Below are positions 1 to 35,061 of a DNA stretch of 46,317 nucleotides, piece after piece. The notes under the pieces are model-generated. The model saw nothing but the letters and a program-made list of their open reading frames with translations, made no database searches and was not told the DNA's origin. Position 1 is the first letter of the stretch, and each line of letters starts with the position of its first letter. Origin of the DNA: a virus. Location: positions 1 to 46,317 of the IMG/VR virus record IMGVR_UViG_3300031673_014237, one strand, 5' to 3'. A program made the translations under genes and the position numbers.

Positions 1-612
1 AATACAGATGAAAATGGAGGTTTTTACTTTTACCCTACCGTAAATATGCTTGGTCTCAACGTCCGTATGACTGAAGTGACTGCTGCCATAGCCAGATGCC
101 AACTGCAAAAATTGGATAGTTTTATAGAGGCAAAACGAAAGAATGTCAAACGCTTACATGAGGTTTTAGAAGATATACCAGCCATAAAACCGTCCCCGAT
201 TAGAGACAACTGTACCCATTCATACTATGTACAGTCGTTTAAATGGGATGCTGAGGCAGCAGGGATACACAGAGATAAATATATTGAGGCCGTGAAAGCA
301 GAACTTACACCAGAGGAAGGGCGGGAATCAGAAGGTGTGCCCATCGGTTGTGGATACATAAAACCCCTTAATCTTTTTCCCTTGTTTCAGAATGAACAGC
401 TCTATGGTGGAACCTCATACCCATTTAATTTAGCGCCAAGAGGTAATATGGCAGAAAACTACGCTCCCGGCTCTTGCCCTGTTGCCGAAAGGCTATGGAA
501 GGATAAATTGTTTTTATGGAGATTACAAAGTTTGCCTTTAACGGAAGAAGATATAAACGATGTTGGGCAAGCATTCTCCAAGGTCTGGGAAAATCGGAGG
601 GAGTTAAAGTGA
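1..612 (+). CDS. DegT/DnrJ/EryC1/StrS-family PLP aminotransferase, C-terminal part (5' end outside window)
   Basis: The frame is open from base 1, so the gene begins before the window and only about 203 residues remain. The sequence GLNVRMTEVTAAIARCQLQK matches the family's typical 'G.N.RMTE..AA....QL.KLD' block, and the C-terminal CPVAERLWKDKLFLW block is also typical. These enzymes transfer an amino group from glutamate to a nucleotide-linked keto-sugar. The PLP-binding lysine lies upstream and cannot be seen. PseB-like, GNAT and NeuB-like genes downstream make a PseC-type role in nonulosonic acid synthesis plausible, but the substrate is inferred. The stop overlaps the next gene (GTGA). 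Confidence 0.85.
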   Translation, partial: NTDENGGFYFYPTVNMLGLNVRMTEVTAAIARCQLQKLDSFIEAKRKNVKRLHEVLEDIPAIKPSPIRDNCTHSYYVQSFKWDAEAAGIHRDKYIEAVKAELTPEEGRESEGVPIGCGYIKPLNLFPLFQNEQLYGGTSYPFNLAPRGNMAENYAPGSCPVAERLWKDKLFLWRLQSLPLTEEDINDVGQAFSKVWENRRELK

Positions 613-857
613 AGGAAGAAGCAAAGGCATCAAGCAAACAGGTAGGAGGAAACCATTATAAACAGTACAAAATCCAACCTTACGAGTTTTTCATTAAAAA
701 TCAGATCCCTCATCATAAAGCTGCGATTATTCGCAGAATACTGAGGTATGATCACCCTACAGGGGCAGGGTTAGAGGACTTAGAGAAAATCAAGCATGAA
801 GTCGATTTAATAATCGAATTTGAGGGGTGGCCCCATGCAGGAAAAGAAAAGAATTAA
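609..857 (+). CDS. DUF3310-family small phage protein
   Basis: About 82 residues. I chose the GTG at 609, which overlaps the upstream stop as GTGA and has GGAGGG about 8 bases before it. The block VGGNHYKQYKIQPYEF, followed by RRILRYDHPTGAGLEDLEKI, is the DUF3310 signature (VGGdHY...qPieF ... ikYi.Ry..K.G.eDL.Ka). The family is common in phages. As far as I recall, the T7 gp1.7 nucleotide kinase has been linked to it, but no kinase motif is obvious here. It is translationally coupled to the aminotransferase, although the functions look unrelated. Confidence 0.8.
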   Translation: MKEEAKASSKQVGGNHYKQYKIQPYEFFIKNQIPHHKAAIIRRILRYDHPTGAGLEDLEKIKHEVDLIIEFEGWPHAGKEKN

Positions 858-867
858 ATTAAAATAT

Positions 868-888
868 ACAGCTTGAATCAGTATAATA
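868..888 (+). promoter_or_regulatory. Putative promoter, -10 TATAAT with shared upstream motif
   Basis: ACAGCTT, a few bases, then TCAGTATAATA precedes the NeuB-like gene. The same pair of motifs occurs at 8188-8206 upstream of another plus-strand gene. TATAAT fits a bacterial -10 box, but there is no good -35 at 17 bp. This could be an extended -10 promoter. The evidence is only two copies. Confidence 0.3.
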
Positions 889-908
889 TAAGAAGGAGAA
901 TAAAAAAA

Positions 909-1817
909 GTGATTCAATGGGTAGCAGAAATAGGCAGTAATCACAACAGATCGCTAAGCCGAACCCTCAGCTTAATTGACAAGGCCGCTGAGATCGGCTG
1001 TAATGGGGTGAAATTTCAATTATTCAATGCAAGGCTACTCTATGCCCCAGAATTTAAAGATCGTATAGCCTCGATGGAAAAATGGGCTTTACCAGAGAGA
1101 TTTCTCCCCTCCATCAAAGCACACTGTAACAAGAAGAGAATTAAAATTGGCATCTCAGTTTTTGATTTAAGGTCAGTCGAAATTGCAAAAGAATATGCAG
1201 ATTGGCTAAAGATAGGAAGTTATGAAATATTGTGGTTCCCTCTATTAAAAGCCGTCATTGATACCGGGCTCCCTTGGGTTTTCTCAACGGGAATGACAAA
1301 CGATATGAATGGAATTGGATGGTTGATATCTATGGGGTTATATAAGGGCAACCCCCCATATGCTATCTTGCATTGCAACTCTAATTACCCTGCCCTGCCA
1401 AAACATTGCAATTTATCCCGGATCAAGGAGATTGAAAAATCAACAAGAATTCTTGAGAAGCAAAGACCTGAACAAAATTATGTGCCTGCAAAAATTGGAT
1501 GGAGCGATCACACTAGAAATCCAGAATTAGTTTTGACTGCAATTGAACAAGGAGCATCTATTGTTGAGTTTCACTTTGATCTTGAAGATGGCAAGGGAGC
1601 AGAATCGTCATATAATCATTGCTGGAAACCCAGCGAAGCCAAGTTTTTAATTGAGAGGTCTGTATTTTTTGAAAGGATCGAGATGGAATACCCAGACAAA
1701 GAACAATGGATTCATTCAGCCTCAACAAAGGAAAATGAGGCCAGCAAATGGAGAACGGACCCGGAAGACGGATTGAGACCGTTGCAAAAATATAGATCAG
1801 AATTACTTAAAAAATAA
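909..1817 (+). CDS. NeuB/PseI-family nonulosonic acid synthase lacking the SAF domain
   Basis: 302 residues from a GTG at 909, which is preceded by AGGAG at 894-898; an upstream TTG at 873 is in frame but has no good ribosome site. NeuB enzymes condense phosphoenolpyruvate with an N-acetyl-hexosamine. Visible family blocks are VAEIGSNHNRS, GCNGVKFQLF, KIGSYEI...PLL, FSTGMTND, ILHCNSNYP, GWSDHT and GASIVEFHF. NeuB proteins usually have about 340 residues with a C-terminal SAF (antifreeze-like) domain. This one ends at RPLQKYRSELLKK with no such domain, as in some shortened relatives. Whether the product is sialic, legionaminic or pseudaminic acid cannot be read from the sequence. Confidence 0.85.
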   Translation: MIQWVAEIGSNHNRSLSRTLSLIDKAAEIGCNGVKFQLFNARLLYAPEFKDRIASMEKWALPERFLPSIKAHCNKKRIKIGISVFDLRSVEIAKEYADWLKIGSYEILWFPLLKAVIDTGLPWVFSTGMTNDMNGIGWLISMGLYKGNPPYAILHCNSNYPALPKHCNLSRIKEIEKSTRILEKQRPEQNYVPAKIGWSDHTRNPELVLTAIEQGASIVEFHFDLEDGKGAESSYNHCWKPSEAKFLIERSVFFERIEMEYPDKEQWIHSASTKENEASKWRTDPEDGLRPLQKYRSELLKK

Positions 1818-1847
1818 CTTTACTTTTTGTCTTTTAGGGGAAGAAAG

Positions 1848-2435
1848 ATGAAATTGATTAAAAAATTGCCAAGCCGCAAAGACAGAAAAGGAAAGACAAG
1901 ACAATATGGGATTTTCTTTTGTTCTTATTGTAAGCAGGAGATTGAGAAAGCGGTTGAAAACGGCAAAGCAGATAAATCTTGCGGATGTTCAAGAAGAAAA
2001 TTGGCAGGTATAAATAGAGCAAGGCATCGTGAAGGCAAAACTAGACTTTATAAAACTTGGTTAGATATGAAACAAAGATGTGTGAATCCAAATAATGGGG
2101 GCTACCAATATTATGGAGGGAGGGGAATCAAAGTTTATAATGAATGGTTAGATTATATTGTTTTCAGAGATTGGGCACTGGCCAATGGATATAAACCCGA
2201 TCTTACGATAGACAGAAAAAACAATAATGGCAATTATGAGCCTAATAATTGTTGGTTTATCACCCAAAAAGAAAATAACAGAAACCAAAATAAAACAATT
2301 CTTTCAATGAAAATCGCAAATGAAATTAGATCAAAATATGTTCCTTGGAAATATTCGATGTATAAACTTGCTGAAGAATATAATGTAACACAAACACACA
2401 TTTTCAATATATTGAAAGGAAGAGCGTGGACTTAA
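1848..2435 (+). CDS. Free-standing HNH-like (homing-type) endonuclease with C-terminal HTH
   Basis: 195 residues from ATG 1848, with AGGGG at 1836-1840 as ribosome site. A Cys-rich N-terminus (CSYC ... CGC) suggests a zinc ribbon. The middle contains YKTWLDMKQRCVNPNN, YYGGRGIKVYNEW, LTIDRKNNNGNYEPNNCW and a QKENNRN tail, a block common in phage-borne endonuclease-like proteins. The last 45 residues (IRSKY...KLAEEYNVTQTHIFNILKGR.W) look like a helix-turn-helix of the intron-endonuclease type. It interrupts the sugar cassette as a stand-alone gene. Function is inferred from family resemblance. Confidence 0.65.
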   Translation: MKLIKKLPSRKDRKGKTRQYGIFFCSYCKQEIEKAVENGKADKSCGCSRRKLAGINRARHREGKTRLYKTWLDMKQRCVNPNNGGYQYYGGRGIKVYNEWLDYIVFRDWALANGYKPDLTIDRKNNNGNYEPNNCWFITQKENNRNQNKTILSMKIANEIRSKYVPWKYSMYKLAEEYNVTQTHIFNILKGRAWT

Positions 2436-2454
2436 TAATATAAGGAGTTACTAA

Positions 2455-2730
2455 ATGGATGAATTTGAAAAAGAAATGTTAAAAACAATTGCTAAATTTC
2501 ATCGACACCCATTAGATGATATTGAATATGTATACCAAAAGATCAAACAATTTGATAAGGTAATCACTTTAATTAACTTTGCAGATGAGTTTAACCAGAG
2601 ATTGAGATATATGGGAAATCTGTTTGTAGCAATAACTAAAACACCAAGAAATGCTTTTGAATGGATTAATTGGGCAGGAAAAAATAATAAATTCAAAGCA
2701 ACAGTTGAAGAAACATTAAAAGAACGATGA
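2455..2730 (+). CDS. Hypothetical protein, 91 aa
   Basis: I do not recognise a family. ATG 2455 follows AAGGAG at a good distance. The protein is charged and probably helical (MDEFEKEMLKTIAKF ... ATVEETLKER), with no signal peptide or membrane segment. Its stop overlaps the next start as ATGA, so it is co-translated with the secreted 3D protein. Confidence 0.6.
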   Translation: MDEFEKEMLKTIAKFHRHPLDDIEYVYQKIKQFDKVITLINFADEFNQRLRYMGNLFVAITKTPRNAFEWINWAGKNNKFKATVEETLKER

Positions 2731-3224
2731 AAAGGTATCAAAAGGAACTTAAAAAAATGAAAAGTAAAATCTTCTTTCTCCTCGCCTTTATCTTGCTATT
2801 CATTCCTTCCCTGGTCAATTCAAACTCAGACGATGTTGCGATAAGACTAGCTAACCTTGAGAAACGAATAACGGAACTGGAAACCTACATTGAAATGGGC
2901 AGCATTAATTACACTCACCAAAAGGTTACTGTTACCGCTTATCATCCGAATTCAAAGGGCATTAACTCAGATCGAAACCCTGCCAGGACAGCAACGATGA
3001 AAAGGCCGATTGCTGGTTACACCCTGGCAATTTCTAATGAATTGTTTCGTTTGGGCTGGCTGGGAAAGAAAATCTATATTGATGGCTGGGGAGTTGGAAG
3101 GGCCACAGACAGAATGAGCACATCAGTAAAGGGCAAGCATATTGACATCTGTTTTCCAAGTTTAAAGACTGCCAGAACATTTGGAATAAAACGAGGGATA
3201 TTGGCCGTTTTATTATTGCAATGA
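2727..3224 (+). CDS. Secreted or membrane-anchored 3D-domain (RlpA/MltA-like barrel) protein
   Basis: 165 residues from ATG 2727 (ATGA overlap); an in-frame ATG at 2757 also has an upstream AGGAA and would start directly at the signal peptide. Residues 11-33 form a hydrophobic signal or anchor. A short heptad-like stretch (VAIRLANLEKRITELETYIE) follows. The 3D domain then runs from TVTAYHP to the end, with the three aspartates D119 (YIDGWG), D128 (ATDRM) and D140 (HIDICF). 3D domains belong to the double-psi barrel fold of peptidoglycan lytic transglycosylases. A cell-wall role during infection is plausible but not shown. The gene lies outside the late lysis cassette. Confidence 0.7.
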   Translation: MKRYQKELKKMKSKIFFLLAFILLFIPSLVNSNSDDVAIRLANLEKRITELETYIEMGSINYTHQKVTVTAYHPNSKGINSDRNPARTATMKRPIAGYTLAISNELFRLGWLGKKIYIDGWGVGRATDRMSTSVKGKHIDICFPSLKTARTFGIKRGILAVLLLQ

Positions 3225-3236
3225 GGGAAAGAAACC

Positions 3237-4307
3237 ATGAAACATTCAATTGTCTATAAAAACAAAGACAGATATGCCAGTTTTCCGTTGCTGGAGAAAC
3301 TTGATGACAGAATCTTAATTGGGTTTTTCACTGCCCCCATTCCTGACCACATGGGCTTGTTTTGGTGGAATGTACTTGAATCATTTGACCAAGGAGAAAC
3401 GTGGCAGGATTTCAATCGGTGGACAGACTCGAAGCCCCGTTCTGTAATACATCATTACAATTGGCCTGCCAATTCTCCACGGGAGAAATCAGACAGATTT
3501 GTATTTGAAGCCGGGGAATCAATGATTGCAACCGGCTCATATGGATTCAAGATAAACCGCAAAGAGAAGATAATCACAAAAAGCACAAATCTCTTCTATC
3601 GCCATTACCCAAAAGACTGGGAAAAGCTCAACAATCAAAAAACCTATGAAATCCCAGGTATTGATATCATTTTAACCTTTCCAAGGCTCCTCCAGATTGA
3701 CAATTTAATCTTGATTCCTGCCTATGCAATTTTGAAAGGAAGTGGGAAAAGCCGTTGCCTTGTATGGAGATCAACTGACTATGGGAGAACTTTCCATCTA
3801 TGGAATATGTTCCCTGATGAAATTGATGGAAACGAAATGGCTTTTATTGCCACAACCAATGGCATCCTTGCTCATATTCGCAGTGACAAGCACCCTTATC
3901 TGCTGGAAAGTTGGTCAGAAAATGCTGGGATGACATGGTCATATCCCACAAAGGTTTCCAGTGCCAGGAGCAATATAATCGGTGGCCCTCCACATCTATT
4001 GAAATTGAATGATGGCAGGATAATATGCAGCTATGGCTATCGTTTTCAACCAATGGGCATTCGGGCAATTGTGTCTGAAGATGAAGGGAGAATGTGGTCT
4101 GCTCCGACAATTCTGCGAGAAGACGGCGGATATTCAAGCAGCCTGCACAAAAGAAAATGGAAAAGCAAATTTAAAATGCCTCATGCCGGGAATGACATCG
4201 GGTATCCTGTGAGTATTCAATGTGATGATGAATCAATTTTGACGGCATATTACATAACCGGAAAAGATCGAATAACGGGGATCGAAGTGACGAAATGGAA
4301 GATTTGA
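3237..4307 (+). CDS. BNR/Asp-box sialidase-superfamily protein
   Basis: 356 residues. Four Asp-boxes (S.D.G.TW type) are visible: SFDQGETW at 49-56, STDYGRTF at 179-186, SENAGMTW at 227-234 and SEDEGRMW at 280-287. This fits a six-bladed beta-propeller sialidase fold. Sialidases remove terminal sialic or related nonulosonic acids. No signal peptide is seen, so it may act in the cell or on the virion. Its place between genes for nonulosonate synthesis suggests related substrates, but Asp-boxes also occur in non-sialidases and I did not identify the full arginine triad. Confidence 0.7.
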   Translation: MKHSIVYKNKDRYASFPLLEKLDDRILIGFFTAPIPDHMGLFWWNVLESFDQGETWQDFNRWTDSKPRSVIHHYNWPANSPREKSDRFVFEAGESMIATGSYGFKINRKEKIITKSTNLFYRHYPKDWEKLNNQKTYEIPGIDIILTFPRLLQIDNLILIPAYAILKGSGKSRCLVWRSTDYGRTFHLWNMFPDEIDGNEMAFIATTNGILAHIRSDKHPYLLESWSENAGMTWSYPTKVSSARSNIIGGPPHLLKLNDGRIICSYGYRFQPMGIRAIVSEDEGRMWSAPTILREDGGYSSSLHKRKWKSKFKMPHAGNDIGYPVSIQCDDESILTAYYITGKDRITGIEVTKWKI

Positions 4308-4308
4308 A

Positions 4309-4566
4309 ATGAGACAATTTAAGTCGGTAACAGAAGAAGAAGTTGAAAAAGTATGGGGCAATGCCAATTTCGGTTCCGATCTAAATGAGCGCAAAATGGA
4401 TGTCGTCAAAGGGGCACTGCTCAAATGGGCAAGTGAATACAGCACCGGACATACGGCATTTTGTATATTGGTTGAACTTGGTTTAATAACGGAAAAGAAA
4501 CACCTTACAGCCCGTGGCAGGCGGCAATTATGGGAATTTTTTGGGAATAACTGTGCAAAAGTTTAA
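4309..4566 (+). CDS. Hypothetical protein, 85 aa
   Basis: No family recognised. It starts one base after the sialidase stop region, so it is in the same operon. The sequence (MRQFKSVTEEEVEKVWGNANFG ...) has a helical middle and a basic ARGRRQLWEFF tail. It resembles small phage proteins that often accompany metabolic genes. Confidence 0.55.
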   Translation: MRQFKSVTEEEVEKVWGNANFGSDLNERKMDVVKGALLKWASEYSTGHTAFCILVELGLITEKKHLTARGRRQLWEFFGNNCAKV

Positions 4567-4582
4567 ATTACAAGGAGACAAA

Positions 4583-5536
4583 ATGAACTGGAATGAAAAG
4601 GAAGTTTTAATCACTGGTGGCACTGGCAGCCTCGGGAAAGCCCTAACAAAACAACTACTCAATGAGTACCATCCAAAAGGCATCAGAATATTCAGTAGAG
4701 ATGAATTGAAGCAATGGGAAATGAAAAGTGCTCTTGCCCAGGAATACAAAACCCTCCCCGTGTCTTTTCTTGTTGGCGATATCCGAGATCGGAAACGGGT
4801 TGAATTGGCAACTAAAGGCGTGCATATTATTATTCATGCTGCTGCTCTTAAACAAGTGCCCTCATGTGAAGATAACCCCTTAGAAGCCATCAACACAAAC
4901 ATCATCGGCGCCCAAAACGTGCTTTATGCTGCCCTTGAAAACAAGGTTGAAAAGGTTATGGCGATCAATACAGACAAAGCCGTAATGCCGATAAATTTAT
5001 ACGGAGCAACGAAACTTTGTGCTGAGAAGTTGTTCATCCAAGGCAATACCTACAGCGGAAATCGAATCCCTCACTTTTCAGTTTGTCGTTACGGAAATGT
5101 AATTGGAAGCAGGGGCAGCGTTATCCCTTTGTTCCAAAAACAATATGCCGAGACAGGAAAGGTGACCATCACCGACAAAAATATGACCCGTTTCTGGATT
5201 ACATTGGTCCAGGCCTCCAACTTCATTTTACAAGCAATTGAAGATATGGAAGGAGGGGAGATTTTCATTCCCAAAATGTCCAGTGCTGCTGTGGCAACAA
5301 TAGCACATGCAATCTGTCCTGATGCAGAAATTGAAATCGTGGGGATTCGGCCTGGAGAGAAATTGCATGAGACATTAATCACAAAAGAGGAAAGTGTTCA
5401 CACAACAATGAATATAGGTAAAAATAGATTTGAAATCAGAGCAATAGGAAAATTCAACCAATTTGAATACCGTAGTGACAACAATCCCCATTGGTTGGCA
5501 TTGGAGCAAATAAAGGAAATGATAAAGGAGGCATAA
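4583..5536 (+). CDS. pseB: PseB-like UDP-GlcNAc 4,6-dehydratase (SDR family)
   Basis: 317 residues from ATG 4583, preceded by AAGGAGAC. An upstream in-frame GTG lies inside the previous gene and is unlikely. The NAD(P) motif ITGGTGSLG is at residues 10-18. The catalytic residues of PseB-type enzymes are in place: T130-D131-K132 (INTDKAV) and Y140...K144 (LYGATK). The blocks CRYGNVIGSRGSV and GIRPGEKLHE are also typical. PseB performs the first step of pseudaminic acid synthesis (4,6-dehydration and 5-epimerisation of UDP-GlcNAc); related CapD/FlaA1 enzymes differ in stereochemistry. The acetyltransferase gene follows with TAATG overlap. Confidence 0.88.
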   Translation: MNWNEKEVLITGGTGSLGKALTKQLLNEYHPKGIRIFSRDELKQWEMKSALAQEYKTLPVSFLVGDIRDRKRVELATKGVHIIIHAAALKQVPSCEDNPLEAINTNIIGAQNVLYAALENKVEKVMAINTDKAVMPINLYGATKLCAEKLFIQGNTYSGNRIPHFSVCRYGNVIGSRGSVIPLFQKQYAETGKVTITDKNMTRFWITLVQASNFILQAIEDMEGGEIFIPKMSSAAVATIAHAICPDAEIEIVGIRPGEKLHETLITKEESVHTTMNIGKNRFEIRAIGKFNQFEYRSDNNPHWLALEQIKEMIKEA

Positions 5537-6090
5537 TGACCCCTATAGCAAAAACCAAACGCCTTGAATTAGTCAGCCTTATAGAATTGGTGGAAGAGGA
5601 ATACCCTACCAATTACTTGTCTTGGCTAAATGATCCAGAAGTAACCAAATACAATCATTGGGGCCTCTTCCCATACACTTCTTTGACGAGAGACCAATAT
5701 ATACAAGAACTCAAAAAGAGCAATAAAGCAATCGTTTGGGCCTGCCTTGTTGAGGGAATTCACATTGGAAACTTCACCCTACAAAATATCAACTATATAT
5801 ACCGCAGTGCAGAGTTTGCAGTGGTCATGGGCGAAAAAGAATATTGGAATAAGGGATATTGCACTGAAGCAGCCCGCCTGCTTTTTGCCCACGCCTTTGA
5901 TAAACTAAACCTTCACCGGGTGTGGACTGGTACGGCAGCAACAAACGCCGGAATGAGAAAAGTTGCTGAGAAATTGGGCATGACAAATGAGGGGGTTTTC
6001 ATTGACGCTATGTTTCTCAATGGAGAGTATGTTAATATTTATGAATTTGGGATCACCGAAAAAGAATGGAGACAACATGAAAACAAATGA
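5536..6090 (+). CDS. GNAT-family N-acetyltransferase (RimJ/RimL type, PseH-like role likely)
   Basis: 184 residues from ATG 5536, which overlaps the pseB stop, with AAAGGAGG at 5525-5531. It has the RimJ/RimL layout: RLELVSL at the N-terminus, WLNDPEVTKYNHWG, GNFTLQNI, the acetyl-CoA region EYWNKGYCTEAARLL, and NLHRVWTGTAATNAGMRKVAEKLGM near the end. Coupling to pseB suggests it acetylates a 4-amino sugar nucleotide as PseH does, giving a UDP-2,4-diacetamido sugar. The exact substrate is inferred. Confidence 0.85.
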   Translation: MTPIAKTKRLELVSLIELVEEEYPTNYLSWLNDPEVTKYNHWGLFPYTSLTRDQYIQELKKSNKAIVWACLVEGIHIGNFTLQNINYIYRSAEFAVVMGEKEYWNKGYCTEAARLLFAHAFDKLNLHRVWTGTAATNAGMRKVAEKLGMTNEGVFIDAMFLNGEYVNIYEFGITEKEWRQHENK

Positions 6091-6256
6091 CATCTTCAAT
6101 CAAGTCAAAAAGATTCGTACCCAGAACAATGAAAACTGGATGGAACTTTTGAGGCTAGCTTTTAGAATAGATCCATACAATGCCAAGAAAATTATGCAAA
6201 AGATTGTTGAGTGTGATGAAAAGATCAAAGACCTTTGTAAGGAGTTGATAGAATGA
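6077..6256 (+). CDS. Hypothetical small protein, 59 aa
   Basis: ATG 6077 lies inside the end of the acetyltransferase gene and has GGAGAC just upstream, so translation is coupled. The protein is charged and helical (NENWMELLRLAFRIDP ... KIKDLCKELIE). No family recognised. Confidence 0.55.
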   Translation: MKTNDIFNQVKKIRTQNNENWMELLRLAFRIDPYNAKKIMQKIVECDEKIKDLCKELIE

Positions 6257-6438
6257 AAACCAAAACAGCAAGAAGGTTTCTGAGTCGTAATGCCTATAAA
6301 GCAGCACACATAAAAACATTCACCCCTAACAAAAAGAACCACTTCACAAGACGATGGCAAGAATGCCTTAAAACAGTTGCAAAAGAAATGAGGATCAAAA
6401 ATGAGCAAAAAGAAAAAGCAGAAACGATCGAAACTTAA
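6253..6438 (+). CDS. Hypothetical small basic protein, 61 aa
   Basis: Overlaps the previous stop (ATGA) with AAGGAG upstream. It is basic and rich in Lys, Arg and His (KTARRFLSRNAYKAAH). It overlaps the start of the next gene by 38 bases in another frame, which is typical of compact phage operons. No family recognised. Confidence 0.5.
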   Translation: MKTKTARRFLSRNAYKAAHIKTFTPNKKNHFTRRWQECLKTVAKEMRIKNEQKEKAETIET

Positions 6439-7795
6439 AAAGAATCTGAATGCTCTGAAAACAATTAACCCCGGTATGTTCAGTTGGTTAAAAAAGCAAC
6501 CAGAGATTGATTGGATACAGGAGATTAAAAGCGAAAACGGAGACAGAAATCTGCTTATTCAAAGTGGCAGCAATCTGATCAATGCCTATCTAATGGACAA
6601 TCCAATGAAAGAGGCCGAGAGCGTAGCAGACCAAATGAATCTATACAAGGAAAATATCAGCATTATCATTGGGGCTGGACTAGGCTATCTTTGCAAAGCC
6701 GTTTTAGAGAAAATGGAAAAGAAACACAGAGTTATTGTAATCGAACCTATTGGAAGCATGATCAAATTAGCCCTGTCTAATTTTGACTTCTCAGAGGATC
6801 TCCGAAAAGGAAATCTAATATTCCTGCCGGGCAAGATTGAATTAGTCTATACCCTGCATTTTCTTAGTGGTCAATTTGTTATTTCCGATTGGTTACTAAC
6901 AACCGAAAAGTATACTCGCCATCGCCCCCATGAATATAATGAAATCGTCTCAGCTGCCCAGGAGACTATTAACCAGATAATGTGTAATACTGGAACTGTT
7001 GCAGGGGCCGCTGGAGGGATAATCGCTGACAATGACATTGCCTGTATGCCCTACGTCCTGCGACACCGGGGAGTAAATGAATTAAAAGGACTGTATAAGG
7101 ATAAACCTGCTATTTGTGTAAGCACCGGTCCCTCACTGGCAAAGAATATACATCATTTAATTGACCTTAAAGACAGGGCAATTATTATTTGTGTCGGGCA
7201 GGCAATCCGGCCATTGCTAGGTTATGGAATTAAACCTGATTTTGCAACAACTGTCGATTTTGGCGAAGTCAATATTGGACACTTTAAGGGGTTACTTGAT
7301 TGTAATATTCCCCTTGTAACAATAAACAGAACCTACGCCCTTTTAATAAAAGCATGGCAAGGACCCAAATTTATTGCTGCCACACCGGTCCCCGGATATG
7401 AGAGTATGGCAACTGGAATACTGACAGACAAAGGGTTTATCGAGGCCGGTGGCAGTGTAGCCCATTTGTCATTCGGTCTCGCACAATTGCTTGGCTGCAA
7501 CCCTATTGCTTTTTTGGGACAAGATTTGGCCTTGACGGATGGATCACATATTCCACTGGCAGATGCTTCAGGGGAGGTAAAAATAAATGCAGCAGGTGGG
7601 ATCGATTGGGTTGTGAAAGACCCCCGATGCAGTTTAACAGGCGAAGGGAAATCATACAGCATGGGCATGGTGCATTATGTTGAGGGATTTTATGGAGGAA
7701 AAACTTTAACAAACATGGGCCTAATGTCATTTTTGACAGTTTTTGAGGGAATGATATCTCGTCACCTTGAAGGAAATAAAGGGAAATTAACTTGA
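6401..7795 (+). CDS. Maf/DUF115-family glycosyltransferase (flagellin nonulosonate transferase-like)
   Basis: 464 residues after GAGGATCAAAA. The Lys-rich N-terminus is followed by IIIGAGLGYL (89-97) and the DUF115 core PAICVSTGPSLAKN (236-249), ALL-beta/alpha segments with GYGIKPDFATTVDF, GGSVAHLSFGLAQLLG and FLGQDLALTDGSHI. DUF115 (MAF_flag10) proteins of bacteria attach pseudaminic or legionaminic acid to flagellin serines and threonines. It closes the sugar cassette, so the likely acceptor is a host surface or flagellar protein, or a phage protein. CMP-activation (PseF/NeuA) and PseG genes are not in the window and would have to lie to the left or come from the host. Confidence 0.82.
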   Translation: MSKKKKQKRSKLKKNLNALKTINPGMFSWLKKQPEIDWIQEIKSENGDRNLLIQSGSNLINAYLMDNPMKEAESVADQMNLYKENISIIIGAGLGYLCKAVLEKMEKKHRVIVIEPIGSMIKLALSNFDFSEDLRKGNLIFLPGKIELVYTLHFLSGQFVISDWLLTTEKYTRHRPHEYNEIVSAAQETINQIMCNTGTVAGAAGGIIADNDIACMPYVLRHRGVNELKGLYKDKPAICVSTGPSLAKNIHHLIDLKDRAIIICVGQAIRPLLGYGIKPDFATTVDFGEVNIGHFKGLLDCNIPLVTINRTYALLIKAWQGPKFIAATPVPGYESMATGILTDKGFIEAGGSVAHLSFGLAQLLGCNPIAFLGQDLALTDGSHIPLADASGEVKINAAGGIDWVVKDPRCSLTGEGKSYSMGMVHYVEGFYGGKTLTNMGLMSFLTVFEGMISRHLEGNKGKLT

Positions 7796-8641: not shown

Positions 8642-8831
8642 AAACAAGCCAGCGGGGTGGAGAAAACCATCAAGACTGAGCGAGCCAGTTAAAACGAGAA
8701 AACCACATTATAGGAGCGAACCAAGCAACAAGAGAAAACCATATTATAGGAGCGAGCCAATTTTCACGAGAAAACCAATAAGCCGGAGCGAGCCATAAGG
8801 GTTGAGAAAACCACAGTTCCCGAGCGTATCT
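8642..8831 (+). repeat. Alternating-core array 1 (18-bp unit, 36-bp period)
   Basis: Core A GAGAAAACCA occurs at 8660, 8696, 8732, 8768 and 8804; core B GAGCGAGCCA (one GAGCGAACCA) at 8678, 8714, 8750 and 8786. All neighbouring starts are exactly 18 bp apart, with 8-bp spacers of differing sequence. A degenerate B core leads in at 8642 (AAACAAGCCA) and a truncated one ends it at 8822 (GAGCGTATCT). In one frame it reads RKPxxxSEPxxx, but TAA at 8796 interrupts this. The right end lies just upstream of the ParB-like gene. Confidence 0.95.
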
Positions 8832-8861
8832 ATTAACCTTTAACAAAAGGAGTTTTCAACA

Positions 8862-9602
8862 ATGACAAAGAAAACTAACAACAAAATCACTTACATCAAA
8901 GCAGGAGAGCTTGTGGTAGACATGGACCTCTACCCCAGGCAAAAGATCAATCGTTTCCATGTCAGCAAACTTCATGAAGCCCTGAAATCTGGAAAAGAAC
9001 TTCCCCCAATCTATGCAGACAAAGAAACAAAAATAATCTCAGACGGCAATCATCGGGTTGAGGCATATTTGAAATTCGGAGGGCCTATGCAAGAAGTCCC
9101 GGCCTTCATAAAAGATTACAAAGGGAACAAGGCAGAAATGTTCAAAGACGCAGTAACCCTCAACTCCTCTCATGGCATGGCCTTCAGCATTTTTGATATT
9201 GGAAGAATTCTGATGAAATGTGAGGGCATGGAAATAAAGATTGATATGGTCTGCCGGTATTTGAACATTACAGAACACAAGGCGGAGAAAATCCTCAACA
9301 GGATAAAGCCGGTAGTAGCACCAACCAAGAAAGGGAAAATGAAAGAAACTGGAGTCAAGGTCTCTATTAAAAGAGGAATGACTAAGCTCAGTTCTCAGGA
9401 TTCCATCACAGAGGAACAGGCAGAGATTAACGAGCACGCTTTGGGGGTGGCGGCAACACGCCTTGCAAAAGACCTGCTGGACAAGATCAAAGGCAATTGC
9501 ATACTCTATACTGCTGATTTGATTTACATGCTTGAAAAACTCCGTGATGCCCTTACTATAGTAATAGAGGCACATAAAGAAGATGAGGCTCAAGAAGGAT
9601 AA
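8862..9602 (+). CDS. ParB/Srx-fold (ParBc) domain protein
   Basis: 246 residues after AAAAGGAG. The N-terminal ParBc domain contains GELVVDMDLYPRQKINRFHV and the nucleotide-binding block IISDGNHRVEAYL (residues 59-70, with G62-N63-H64-R65). A middle segment (MEIKIDMVCRYLNITEHKAEKI) resembles the HTH that follows ParBc in ParB proteins. The C-terminal helices are unassigned. Phage ParBc proteins may be partition proteins, CTPases or regulators. It is placed between array 1 and array 2, so the arrays are candidate binding sites, though nothing here proves that. Confidence 0.8.
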   Translation: MTKKTNNKITYIKAGELVVDMDLYPRQKINRFHVSKLHEALKSGKELPPIYADKETKIISDGNHRVEAYLKFGGPMQEVPAFIKDYKGNKAEMFKDAVTLNSSHGMAFSIFDIGRILMKCEGMEIKIDMVCRYLNITEHKAEKILNRIKPVVAPTKKGKMKETGVKVSIKRGMTKLSSQDSITEEQAEINEHALGVAATRLAKDLLDKIKGNCILYTADLIYMLEKLRDALTIVIEAHKEDEAQEG

Positions 9603-9846
9603 AGAAATTGTGCCACCCAGTACGAGGAAACCATTGTTTATGAGCGAGCCATTTGGTTTGAGAAACCCATCAAGGGCGAGCGAGCCACTTAACCGAAGAA
9701 AACCGCTCATGGGAAGCGAGCCACCGGCGATGAGAAAACCATTTCATTCGAGCGAGCCACAAGACCCGAGAAAACCAACTTCAAAGAGCGTATTCCAAAA
9801 AAGAAAGGAGGTGCATAAAATCAGGCTAAGGCAATCTAACCATTAA
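9583..9846 (+). CDS. Possible RKPxxxSEPxxx 12-residue repeat protein spanning array 2
   Basis: An 87-codon open frame starts with ATG inside the last 20 bases of the ParB-like gene (another frame) and runs through the whole of array 2. It would encode about four copies of a 12-residue unit (RKPLFMSEPFGL, RNPSRASEPLNR, RKPLMGSEPPAM, RKPFHSSEPQDP), basic and proline-rich, with no known fold. The ribosome site is weak (GAGG about 12 bases upstream), so coupling would be needed. Arrays 1 and 3 carry stops in the equivalent frame, so this may be chance or a real exception. Confidence 0.35.
   Translation: MRLKKDKEIVPPSTRKPLFMSEPFGLRNPSRASEPLNRRKPLMGSEPPAMRKPFHSSEPQDPRKPTSKSVFQKRKEVHKIRLRQSNH
9606..9795 (+). 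repeat. Alternating-core array 2 (18-bp unit, 36-bp period)
   Basis: A cores at 9624 (GAGGAAACCA), 9660 (GAGAAACCCA), 9696 (AAGAAAACCG), 9732 and 9768 (both GAGAAAACCA); B cores at 9642, 9678, 9714 (AAGCGAGCCA) and 9750. Spacing is exactly 18 bp throughout, with unrelated 8-bp spacers. A degenerate B core leads in at 9606 and the array ends at 9786 with GAGCGTATTC, nearly the same terminal variant as array 1. It lies between the ParB-like gene and the Tnp_20-like gene. Confidence 0.95.
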
Positions 9847-9871
9847 CTGACAAAATAGGGAGGATTTAAAA

Positions 9872-10597
9872 ATGGCTAACTACAACAGATACGATTTGAG
9901 GAGAGTCACCAAGACCTTGTATGATATTCAAGATATAAGGAAAAGAGTGGAAGGAAGGCTTGGCCTCAAATCCAACGGCGTACAAAAGAAAATAAACGTA
10001 GGCGATGGGTCAAATTTAAAAGCAAACATTAATGAGGATGTCTTCAACCTTTTGAATGTGCTTTTAGCTTTCATGCAGAATGAAGAGAAAAAGCTCACAA
10101 AGCAACAAAAGGAAATGATCGATGATAGTTTTCCTTTTGGGACAATCCTAAGAGAGCAACAGGGAATCGATTACAAATTGGCCGGAGTAATCCTGTCTGA
10201 GATCGACATAGAGGAAGGCTCGACAGTGAGCAAACTCTGGAGATTTTGTGGACTTGACCCAACAGCTAAAAGCAAGAAAGGGGAAAAGAATAAGTATAAC
10301 AAATTCCTCAAAACTAAGTTGGTTGGAACATTCGGGCACATGGCTATACTCAGATTCAGCCATCCATACAGAGCTGTTTACGATGCCCGCAAGATGAGAA
10401 GAGAAAGTCAGGAGTGGGGAGAACGACCAGGGCACAGGCACAACGATGCTATACGATATGCCGTGAAAATGTGGATTGCCAATTGGTTATATCCCACATG
10501 GAGGGCACTAGAGGGGTTGCCAGTAAGACCCCCTTATCATGAGGAAAAACTTGGGCATAAGCACGATGATAAATCCAAGCCCAAGAATAAAAAGTGA
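9872..10597 (+). CDS. IS110-transposase C-terminal (Tnp_20/HhH)-like protein without a DEDD domain
   Basis: 241 residues after AGGGAGGA. The N-terminus is helical. From about residue 98 the pattern GIDYKLAGVILSEI ... KLWRFCGLDPTAKSKKGEK ... LKTKLVGTFGHMAILR ... YRAVYDARK follows the Tnp_20 domain of IS110 transposases (a helix-hairpin-helix 'PGIG...A..lleEI', then 'yaGl.P...KG'). The C-terminus GHRHNDAIRYAVKMWIANWL ... GLPVRPPYHEEKLGHKH is shared, as I recall, with a phage and archaeal group of such proteins. The RuvC-like DEDD domain needed for IS110 recombination is absent, and no insertion-sequence ends are visible. It is flanked on both sides by repeat arrays. Nucleic-acid binding is likely; activity is unknown. 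Confidence 0.65.
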   Translation: MANYNRYDLRRVTKTLYDIQDIRKRVEGRLGLKSNGVQKKINVGDGSNLKANINEDVFNLLNVLLAFMQNEEKKLTKQQKEMIDDSFPFGTILREQQGIDYKLAGVILSEIDIEEGSTVSKLWRFCGLDPTAKSKKGEKNKYNKFLKTKLVGTFGHMAILRFSHPYRAVYDARKMRRESQEWGERPGHRHNDAIRYAVKMWIANWLYPTWRALEGLPVRPPYHEEKLGHKHDDKSKPKNKK

Positions 10598-10607
10598 TTA
10601 AAGGAGA

Positions 10608-10632
10608 GCCGCCGCTTTCACATAGCGGCGGC
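10608..10632 (+). other. Perfect 9-bp inverted repeat (hairpin) left of array 3
   Basis: GCCGCCGCT at 10608-10616 and AGCGGCGGC at 10624-10632 form a GC-rich stem with loop TTCACAT. It starts 10 bases after the Tnp_20-like gene. It lacks a following T-run, so it is a poor intrinsic terminator and may be a structural boundary of array 3. Confidence 0.8.
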
Positions 10633-10647
10633 CCATAACATAATGCC

Positions 10648-10863
10648 AAACGAACCAAGGAAACCGTTGTCAAAAGCGAGCCAAGAGGAAAGAGAAAACC
10701 ATAGTTCGAGAGCGAGCCATATCAGGAGAGAAAACCATTGTTAAAGAGCGAGTCATATAATATGAGAAACCCTCAACTATAAAGCGAGCCAGGTTTGAGG
10801 AGAAAACCATTAATCACGAGCGAGCCAGGATCTCGGAGAAAACCATTAATAACGAGCGAGCCG
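10648..10863 (+). repeat. Alternating-core array 3 (18-bp unit, 36-bp period)
   Basis: B cores at 10674, 10710, 10746 (GAGCGAGTCA), 10782 (AAGCGAGCCA), 10818 and 10854 (GAGCGAGCCG). A cores at 10657 (AAGGAAACCG), 10692, 10728, 10764 (GAGAAACCCT), 10800 and 10836. The spacing is 18 bp except at the left, where one unit is 17 bp and a degenerate B core (AAACGAACCA, 10648) directly abuts the first A core. In the RKP/SEP frame it has stops (TAG at 10702, TAA at 10779), so the array as a whole is not coding. Hairpins lie at both ends. Confidence 0.95.
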
Positions 10864-10903
10864 GAAAGCACAGCGGGATTTTAAATGAGCCTGCTGTGCT
10901 TCC
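10863..10903 (+). other. Long imperfect hairpin at right end of array 3
   Basis: GGAAAGCACAGCGGG (10863-10877) pairs with CCTGCTGTGCTTCC (10890-10903) over about 14 bp, with one bulged A and one G-T pair; the loop is ATTTTAAATGAG. It starts at the last base of the final core B. It may be a terminator (followed by AAAACAA, not T) or a boundary of an array RNA. Confidence 0.75.
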
Positions 10904-13935: not shown

Positions 13936-15330
13936 TCAATTCTCCTTCTTTTTTAGCCTCCTGCACAATGCGTAATCTGGCTTAGGGATCACTTTTTTTA
14001 TGGGCGTAACCGGCTCCTGTTTCAACCATGCTTCATCATAATCAGGAGGCAAGCCAACCGTAACTTCTTTCGTGGGCCATACAGGATTGGAATCTTCGTC
14101 TATGTCATAATCCTGTTCAATGACTTGTAATAAATCCAAATTCGGTTCTTCTTCGCCTTTGATACATTTTGCTCGCATTTCAGCAAGTTCTTCTTTTGAT
14201 GGGTTTATCACAATAATTTCATATTTTGATTTATCAAAATCCCCAAAAGGATGAGGCACGAGTAAAGGTTTCCCCCCGTTGCCGAAACAAGGATGGTCAG
14301 GTGCTTGCCACATTGATCTAATTTTTTTGGTGATTTTATCTCTTAGAATAAAAATCCAAAATACCTCTCCGGATGCGGTAACATATCGTTGTTGAGCATA
14401 GGCCGTATTTGCACTTTGGGCACCAAGGGCAATATTGGTAACATAAGAAGTGGTAACGGAGACTGCTGGATCTGCCATATACGCATCCATTGCACCTGCG
14501 GCGCTTTTTTTGACCTGCGGATAAAATCCATATTCGCCGCCCGGAAGAGTATAATTGGAAATGCCACCAGTACCACTAACGCTTCCCTGGCTAGTTTTAA
14601 GTTTCGCCTGCGCAACTGCGGAGGCTGCAAGTTTGCCTTCAGTGACGGCGAGGGCTGCAAGCATCCCCTCCTCGACAGCAAGATTTGCAATAGTCAAAAC
14701 TCCATCGGCTGCCAATGTAGCATCACCGCCCATTGTCTGGGGTGCAGGATCGGCACCAGTGGCACCTACTACGAGCTGGCCATTTGTCATGGCGGCTATT
14801 GTTGTTATACCAACAGGGCCAGTTGCAATTACCATTGCATGATTGGTTAAACCCGATATTCCTGTAGCAAGTTGAGATTGCATTTGGAAATAAGTACCAT
14901 CATAAATAACAGTTATTATCTGTCCTGATTCAATATCTCCAGTCTCAAGATCTCGATCATGTAGTTTTTTTATACTTTTAGCACCAAGAGCATTGATATT
15001 TAAAGTTGCTGCCCCAGTATTGGCAGTATTTGCCTTGAAATTAACTAACATGCCATTAAAATATGCTGTCACAATCGGATCAAGAGTAATTACATAATCA
15101 TCAGATGCTCCAACATCAGTAGCATACTTAGTTTTATCAATATTAAAAATTGCCTTCCACAACTGATTTCTTGTATCGGCTGAAGCCGGCAAAGGATTAA
15201 TTCCAGTGGCAGTTAAAACAGCAATTATTTCTTCCTGAACAGCATTAAGCCAATCTTCTTCAACCGTTGTTCCTGGCGGCCCATCTGTAAACATATTACC
15301 AACATTATTTTCACCTTCAGTCCTATGCAT
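13936..15330 (-). CDS. Tail-fibre-like protein, 464 aa
   Basis: The first about 65 residues (MHRTEGENNVGNMFTDGPPG ... EDWLNAVQEEI) match the start of the protein at 16103-16696, which suggests a shared attachment domain. The middle is Ala/Gly/Thr-rich with repeated 'LAVTEGKLAASAVAQAKL'-type heptads, as in trimeric fibre shafts. The C-terminal 120 residues (FILRDKITKKIRSMWQAPDH ...) look like a cap or chaperone-like piece. It is the last large gene of the late operon, where Mu-type phages keep fibre genes. Receptor binding is inferred. Confidence 0.7.
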   Translation of the reverse strand: MHRTEGENNVGNMFTDGPPGTTVEEDWLNAVQEEIIAVLTATGINPLPASADTRNQLWKAIFNIDKTKYATDVGASDDYVITLDPIVTAYFNGMLVNFKANTANTGAATLNINALGAKSIKKLHDRDLETGDIESGQIITVIYDGTYFQMQSQLATGISGLTNHAMVIATGPVGITTIAAMTNGQLVVGATGADPAPQTMGGDATLAADGVLTIANLAVEEGMLAALAVTEGKLAASAVAQAKLKTSQGSVSGTGGISNYTLPGGEYGFYPQVKKSAAGAMDAYMADPAVSVTTSYVTNIALGAQSANTAYAQQRYVTASGEVFWIFILRDKITKKIRSMWQAPDHPCFGNGGKPLLVPHPFGDFDKSKYEIIVINPSKEELAEMRAKCIKGEEEPNLDLLQVIEQDYDIDEDSNPVWPTKEVTVGLPPDYDEAWLKQEPVTPIKKVIPKPDYALCRRLKKKEN

Positions 15331-16102: not shown

Positions 16103-16696
16103 TTAATCTTTTACTGCTGCTATGACTTCCTGATAATGCGGAGCCCCATTCGCCCCCGTCGCACCATGATTATGGGCACCGTCTCCACCAATGCTTTCAG
16201 AATCCTGATTACGAGAACCAATATTCCCAGGAGCAGAACCTCCTGCCCCATTTCCTTGCCAACCTTCAGTTGAACTATCATACATACCATGCACATGAGC
16301 AGGCATCTCAGCAATGATTAGAGTATGATCCCCAGTAGTATGTGTATGAGCAGTCTGAGGGTCTACAGCCCCACCCGAACCAATGGCCCCAGCAGCAGCA
16401 TAACAGAGCATAGCATTATCCTGCCAATCATCCTTGCGAGTCCACCCGACAGGAGCAACAGTCTGACCAAAAAGCATGATAGTTCCGGTTGGAATAGGAG
16501 CAAAAGCCTTTCTCAATGCTTCGTTTAATTGTTGAGTCGTTTCCGTCGCAGCAGTTTTTAAAGGTATTCCCTCCTGCTCAATAACATATGCAATCTCTTC
16601 TTGAATTGCATTAAGCCAATCTTCTTCAAGGCGTGTCCCCGGTGGGCCGTTTGCAAAGAAGTTTGCTACATTATTTGCGCCTTCTGTTCTGTGCAT
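16103..16696 (-). CDS. Tail-collar/fibre protein with His-rich tip, 197 aa
   Basis: Residues 1-65 match the fibre gene at 13936-15330. The next block IPTGTIMLFGQTVAPVGWTR is the phage tail-collar (microcystin-dependent protein) motif 'P.GtI..fag..aP.GWl'. After it come H-x-H pairs (AHTHTTGDH, PAHVHG, AHNHGATG), which in fibre tips such as T4 gp37 bind metal ions. A short fibre or tip protein is likely. Confidence 0.75.
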   Translation of the reverse strand: MHRTEGANNVANFFANGPPGTRLEEDWLNAIQEEIAYVIEQEGIPLKTAATETTQQLNEALRKAFAPIPTGTIMLFGQTVAPVGWTRKDDWQDNAMLCYAAAGAIGSGGAVDPQTAHTHTTGDHTLIIAEMPAHVHGMYDSSTEGWQGNGAGGSAPGNIGSRNQDSESIGGDGAHNHGATGANGAPHYQEVIAAVKD

Positions 16697-34815: not shown

Positions 34816-35061
34816 TCAAACCTCTATCACATCAGAAGCCCTCAGGCGACTCCCAGAATAAGCAAACTTCAAAACCTCCAAAAACCGGATTCCATCATCT
34901 GGATAAATAAACCCACTTTTAGTCCTGATTCCCTCCCTTAACTCAGCAATCAATTTTCCTGGCAAGTCTCTGAAAACTACTTTCCCCTCAATAAGCAATG
35001 CCTTTCCGTCCAACCCTTGCTTGCCACTATCCACCGTTCTATAAAATTCAACCTCTTTCAT
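34816..35061 (-). CDS. Hypothetical protein, 81 aa, coupled to the kinase-like head gene
   Basis: ATG overlaps the stop of the head/kinase gene (ATGA). The product (MKEVEFYRTVDSGKQGLDGK ... YPDDGIRFLEVLKFAYSGSR) has no recognised family. Tight coupling suggests a partner of the kinase-like domain or a head protein. No signal or membrane segment. Confidence 0.55.
   Translation of the reverse strand: MKEVEFYRTVDSGKQGLDGKALLIEGKVVFRDLPGKLIAELREGIRTKSGFIYPDDGIRFLEVLKFAYSGSRLRASDVIEV

What the first reader, a model, noticed from the sequence alone, without database searches (positions are those of the whole stretch)
8642..10863. Three arrays of alternating 10-bp cores with hypervariable 8-bp spacers
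Seen directly: about 30 cores in three arrays (8642-8831, 9606-9795, 10648-10863). Core A GAGAAAACCA and core B GAGCGAGCCA alternate strictly; starts are 18 bp apart with one exception. By my count 11 of 16 A cores and 8 of 14 B cores are exact, while the 8-bp spacers between them are nearly all different. A decaying tandem duplication would lose cores and spacers alike, so cores appear to be under selection and spacers free or actively diversified. The pattern does not match CRISPR, iterons or known phage repeats that I recall. Possible readings are a protein-binding array, an array RNA with 8-nt guide-like segments, or a repeat-coding gene family.
Basis: partly seen in the sequence, partly recalled or inferred. 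Interest (0 to 1): 0.92.

Follow-up and report, generated by a model that had tools for sequence, protein, structure and literature searches.

The report
Phage TIGR-Tas dual-guide RNA arrays
The repeats are the guide-RNA arrays of a TIGR-Tas system, an RNA-guided DNA-binding machine described in 2025, here carried by a tailed phage in the version that pairs a nuclease-free TasA protein with a ParB-like partner; it is a clean new member of a known kind, and comparing its relatives suggests the arrays are rewritten by copying whole 36-base guide units.

Summary
The gene between arrays 2 and 3 (9872-10597) encodes a solo-Nop TasA: sequence match to solved TasH and TasR, and a predicted fold whose only good matches are TasH, TasR and IS110 recombinases. 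The gene between arrays 1 and 2 (8862-9602) is a ParB-like TasParB. That paper describes this very layout (arrays before, between and after tasParB-tasA, 10-nt repeats). Array ends show which core is which: arrays open with half an edge repeat (GCCA), and two of three close with the other half (GAGCG), so B is the edge and A the loop, giving about sixteen ~36-nt guide RNAs, each with two 8-nt guides. Of 79 loci fetched through TasA alone, 70 carry these arrays, all on the tas strand. Beyond the paper, as far as I could find: spacer pairs travel together across the loop but not the edge (67 versus 2), and near-duplicate units are enriched within arrays. Natural targets were not found.

The parts
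8648..8826 (+). TIGR array 1: 5' half-edge GCCA, five loop repeats (8660, 8696, 8732, 8768, 8804), four full edge repeats, 3' half-edge GAGCG (8822-8826)
   Evidence: Sequence; pattern statistics; array detection; half-edge ends also seen in relatives
8862..9602 (+). tasParB: ParB-like protein, 246 aa
   Evidence: phrog_1033 ParB-like, E 1.1e-6, residues 6-102; relatives next to TasA and arrays, e.g. L004, L006, L011, L017, L033, L036, L043; no Pfam hit
9612..9790 (+). TIGR array 2: half-edge GCCA (9612-9615), five loops (9624, 9660, 9696, 9732, 9768), four edges, half-edge GAGCG (9786-9790)
   Evidence: Sequence
9872..10597 (+). tasA: solo Nop-domain TIGR effector, 241 aa, no nuclease domain
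   Evidence: phmmer to PDB: TasH 2.8e-12, TasR (9mty) 1.6e-10; AlphaFold2 pLDDT 82.7, Foldseek top 11 all TasH or TasR, next IS621 and ISCro4; phrog_4285 'transposase' 7.4e-29
10645..10863 (+). TIGR array 3: half-edge GCCA (10645-10648), six loops (10657, 10692, 10728, 10764, 10800, 10836), six edges, the last (10854-10863) nearly full
   Evidence: Sequence; one 17-bp step 10657 to 10674
10863..10903 (+). Hairpin directly after array 3, a possible 3' end of the array transcript; it lacks a T tract
   Evidence: RNA fold -24.3 kcal/mol, z -5.85

Best explanation
This is a TIGR-TasA/TasParB locus of a tailed phage. The three arrays lie in the gaps of one gene run (127-aa gene, tasParB, tasA) and are probably transcribed with it. 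The transcript is cut inside each edge repeat (GAGCG/AGCCA), giving about sixteen ~36-nt tigRNAs of the form (A)GCCA-N8-GAGAAAACCA-N8-GAGCG. A TasA dimer holds each tigRNA by its two repeats (GAG as box D, CCA as box C), and the two 8-nt spacers pair with opposite strands of one ~16-bp DNA site. TasA has no nuclease, so the complex most likely binds and bends DNA, either blocking it or marking it for TasParB. Shown here: array anatomy, repeat roles, TasA family and predicted fold, the genomic association, the lack of a coding frame, and co-inheritance of spacer pairs. Inferred from the characterised homologues: transcription, processing, dual-strand pairing. Speculative: the biological role and what TasParB does.
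For: Array form and chance level. TasA relation by sequence and by fold. TasParB relation. Of 79 viral loci found through TasA alone, 70 carry arrays of these cores, all on the tas strand and nearly all next to the gene; 16 also have TasParB; shuffled and reversed sequence gave 0 arrays. Of 45 array starts with a good loop first, 25 have GCCA at the half-edge place and only 1 a full edge; of 53 ends with a good loop last, 40 have RAGCG and none goes on to CCA. The published system has alternating 8-12-nt repeats, 8-9-nt spacers, truncated edges at both ends, 36-nt tigRNAs, and tasParB-tasA operons with arrays upstream, between and downstream and 10-nt repeats. Shared spacers keep their partner across the loop, not the edge (67 versus 2), as expected if edge-to-edge is the functional unit.
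Against: No RNA data exist for this phage, so transcription and 36-nt processing are not shown. No natural target was found: own-contig searches and searches of the other loci were at chance level. Array 3 ends in a nearly full edge, not a half-edge. The hairpin after array 3 lacks a T tract. No Rfam family matches.
Confidence: 0.93

Rival explanations
1. A DNA-level protein-binding array, for example a parS-like centromere bound by the ParB-like protein, with cores as binding sites and spacers as free sequence.
For: A ParB-like gene lies between arrays 1 and 2; strict 18-bp spacing would suit a DNA lattice.
Against: Most relatives have TasA and the same arrays but no detected TasParB (54 of 70 array-bearing TasA-anchored loci). 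Arrays are always on the tas strand, which a DNA site would not need. Spacer pairs are inherited as units. Half-repeat ends match RNA processing points.
Confidence: 0.04
2. A repeat-coding gene family (RKPxxxSEPxxx on the + strand or GFLxxxGSLxxx on the - strand).
For: The 18-bp period is six codons, and array 2 happens to be open in one + frame (ORF 9583-9846).
Against: Window arrays 1 and 3 have stops in all six frames, and long arrays in relatives mostly have many stops in every frame. Spacers show no three-base composition pattern.
Confidence: 0.01
3. A CRISPR-like immune memory that takes up spacers from invaders, using TIGR-Tas as effector.
For: Guide arrays in phages with fast spacer turnover.
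Against: No adaptation gene was identified among the neighbouring proteins scanned. Turnover is explained in part by copying of existing units. No target signal was found.
Confidence: 0.05

Closest known systems
TIGR-TasA with TasParB (Faure et al. 2025, PMC12045711, section 44 and fig. S14)
   Same: tasParB-tasA order, arrays upstream, between and downstream, 10-nt edge and loop repeats, nuclease-free Tas protein
   Different: No difference of kind found; supplementary sequences could not be read, so identity to a published locus was not checked. Spacers are 8 nt against the usual 9.
TIGR-TasH of Salicola phage CGphi29 and TIGR-TasR (PDB 9mty)
   Same: Nop domain, alternating repeats, dual spacers; 8-nt spacers as in SpTasH (16 nt in all)
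   Different: Window TasA has no HNH or RuvC domain; repeats begin with GAG instead of the UG of TasR
IS110/IS621 bridge-RNA recombinases
   Same: Related fold (Foldseek hits 8wt9 and 9t56); PHROG labels the protein 'transposase'
   Different: No room for a DEDD catalytic domain in 241 aa; guide arrays in place of one bridge RNA; weaker structural match than to Tas
Box C/D snoRNPs (Nop5/Nop56)
   Same: Nop-type RNA binding with two guides per RNA, as described for Tas proteins in PMC12045711
   Different: Not among the Foldseek hits here; no fibrillarin or L7 partner seen

Membership tests
TIGR-Tas | Array of two alternating 8-12-nt repeats with short (8-12 nt) variable spacers | tested here: met
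   10-nt repeats, 8-nt spacers, 36-bp period
TIGR-Tas | Adjacent Nop-domain Tas protein | tested here: met
   TasH 2.8e-12, TasR 1.6e-10; Foldseek top 11 all Tas
TIGR-Tas | Arrays begin and end with truncated edge repeats | tested here: met
   All three arrays begin GCCA, arrays 1 and 2 end GAGCG; across relatives 25/45 starts and 40/53 ends. Array 3 ends with a near-full edge
[quoted passage not shown]
   Both repeats start GAG and end CCA in the window and relatives; the box roles are by analogy with the TasR structure
TIGR-Tas | Transcription and processing to 36-nt tigRNAs | not testable with these tools
   No RNA data; edge-to-edge units are inherited together, which agrees
TIGR-Tas | Two spacers pair with opposite strands of one DNA target | tested here: inconclusive
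   No target above chance in own contigs, relatives or three collection scans
TIGR-TasA/TasParB subtype | ParB-like gene in operon with tasA, arrays upstream, between and downstream, 10-nt repeats | tested here: met
   description in PMC12045711 section 44
CRISPR-Cas | Single repeats of 25-36 nt, spacers of similar size, Cas proteins | tested here: not met
   10-nt alternating repeats; no Cas hit among the neighbouring proteins scanned

The most novel reading that the evidence does not exclude
TIGR arrays renew themselves without an adaptation machine: whole edge-to-edge units are copied within and between arrays of related phages, then their spacers diverge while repeats are kept; and in this subtype TasA uses the guides to place a ParB-like clamp on chosen DNA (a programmable parS).
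Probability: 0.2. Interest if true: 0.75.

Novelty: new member of a known kind. Interest (0 to 1): 0.42.

Why it matters
It shows that a raw-sequence reader can pick out a TIGR array unaided, and it adds a well-formed TasParB-type locus with three arrays on a 46-kb phage contig. The repeat consensus GAGAAAACCA/GAGCGAGCCA is a good probe: one scan found 52 stretches of viral contigs. The comparison of near-identical tas genes with different spacers bears on a question the discoverers left open, how TIGR arrays expand and change: units are copied in register with the guide RNA, which can be tested in any pair of related phages.

Tried and rejected
Coding repeat: rejected by stops. Rfam: nothing. 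Targets in own contigs, both strand arrangements, gaps 0-2: at the level of re-paired controls. Targets in all 157 loci: at control level. Collection scans for two conserved units: one arrangement gave 49 of 69 hits at gap 0, with a cluster of 27 homologous contigs, which looked like a real target; I dropped it because the sites lie in one recurrent phage gene seen many times, a second cluster lies in an unrelated gene on the other strand, the arrangement is not the one that I derive from the published 3' overhangs, and no other unit of the same arrays hits those contigs above controls. TasA in plasmid records: none; in named phages only distant Salicola CGphi29 and Microcystis Mvi-JY20.

Full report
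Reading the sequence, cores GAGAAAACCA (A) and GAGCGAGCCA (B) alternate every 18 bp in three intergenic stretches, with one 17-bp step. A two-core pattern matches 13 times in the window against 0.01 expected.

The pattern is widespread. An exact A-N8-B search found 52 stretches of viral contigs, many with arrays of 20 to 60 cores at the same 18-bp step, and 25 stretches in genome contigs, of which 16 hold arrays by my detector, including Nomurabacteria, Veblenbacteria and two archaeal bins. In about 1,070 units the core positions are mostly 75-98% one base while all eight spacer positions are nearly flat. Long arrays carry stops in most or all frames, so they do not encode a protein.

The effector is next door. 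The 241-aa product of 9872-10597 has no Pfam hit but matches solved TasH (2.8e-12) and TasR (1.6e-10). Its predicted structure (mean pLDDT 82.7) has as its top 11 Foldseek matches only TasH and TasR chains, followed by the IS621 and ISCro4 recombinases; nothing else scores well. Its length, and the lack of any added domain, make it a TasA, the nuclease-free form. The product of 8862-9602 is ParB-like and has relatives in nine of the first 52 loci, beside TasA.

The literature settles the family. Faure et al. 2025 (PMC12045711) describe TIGR arrays: an edge and a loop repeat of 8-12 nt alternating with ~9-nt spacers, truncated edge repeats at both ends, processing to 36-nt tigRNAs, and pairing of the two spacers with opposite DNA strands. 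[quoted passage not shown] The window has this layout.

The association was tested without using the repeats as bait. Of 79 new viral loci found with the TasA alignment, 70 contain arrays of these cores, all on the tas strand; shuffled and reversed sequence gave none. I did not examine the nine without a detected array one by one; in some the contig ends close to the gene.

Repeat roles follow from the ends. All three window arrays begin with GCCA, eight bases before the first A core, and arrays 1 and 2 end in GAGCG, eight bases after the last A core. In relatives, 25 of 45 testable starts and 40 of 53 testable ends show the same half-repeats; none of those ends goes on to a full repeat. So B is the edge repeat and is cut near GAGCG/AGCCA, and A is the loop. 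By analogy with the TasR structure, GAG and CCA act as boxes D and C, the A-rich middle of the loop repeat is the tetraloop-like part, and C4 and G7 of the edge could form the extra pair reported there; these assignments are inference.

Array evolution. In a clade whose tas genes are 94-99% identical, spacer sets differ strongly: L019 and L051 share 6 identical units of about 20, L051 and L014 none. L016 and L051 (tas 99.1% identical) have almost the same array, but near its end L051 carries a copy of its own seventh unit, AGGATTTG-TAGAAAACCA-ATCGAAAA, where L016 has AGGTGGTC-AAGAAAACCA-AGTGACTT. Among spacers shared between different loci, the partner across the loop alone is shared 67 times and the partner across the edge alone twice; these counts are not independent, as the 67 come from 18 locus pairs and 47 distinct spacers, mostly one clade. 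Within arrays, spacers of the same kind within one mismatch are 9 to 27 times as frequent as between loci (adjacent B 1.9% against 0.07%), while A against B stays at background. So units are copied in register, edge to edge, and spacers then diverge while repeats stay. Most units show no trace of a source, so uptake from elsewhere is not excluded. I found no report of this, but the library lacks most subscription journals.

Targets. No spacer pair of the window matches its own phage with one mismatch or none. Searches across the loci gave nothing above re-paired controls. Three collection scans gave one tempting cluster, which I reject as chance in an over-represented phage gene. The role therefore stays open, as in the paper.

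Verdict: a new member of a known kind, with a modest new finding on how such arrays change.

Noticed in passing
window 46-7795: The phage carries a run of sugar-biosynthesis-like genes: DegT aminotransferase fragment, NeuB family (873-1817), Polysacc_synt_2/epimerase (4514-5536), GNAT acetyltransferase (5491-6090), and an MptE/Maf-glycosyltransferase-like protein (6401-7795), resembling a pseudaminic or sialic acid flagellin-glycosylation pathway.
   Followed up: partly
window 35058-37814 (-): A 918-aa head-morphogenesis protein holds an intein (Intein_splicing 3.2e-9) with a restriction-endonuclease-like insert (MTES_1575/DUF559) and a C-terminal PI3/PI4-kinase-like stretch.
   Followed up: partly
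window 13936-15330 and 16103-16696 (-): Two tail-region proteins start almost alike (MHRTEGENNVGNMFTDGPPGT / MHRTEGANNVANFFANGPPGT), a likely duplicated N-terminal module.
   Followed up: no
L038:10610-11581 (-) and L001:6586-7494 (-): Larger Tas proteins with an HNH-like N-terminal part (by eye) sit by arrays of the same repeat consensus as TasA loci, so nuclease and nuclease-free Tas seem to share repeats.
   Followed up: no
L019, L051, L016, L005, L027 arrays: One degenerate unit (spacer GAAGGACA, loop TAGCAACCCG or similar, spacer TCCTTACG/TCTTTACG/TCCTTACA) is kept across diverged arrays and could form an AAGGA/TCCTT hairpin.
   Followed up: no
window ~13900: GC skew flips sign near 14 kb, where the coding strand switches from + to -.
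   Followed up: no
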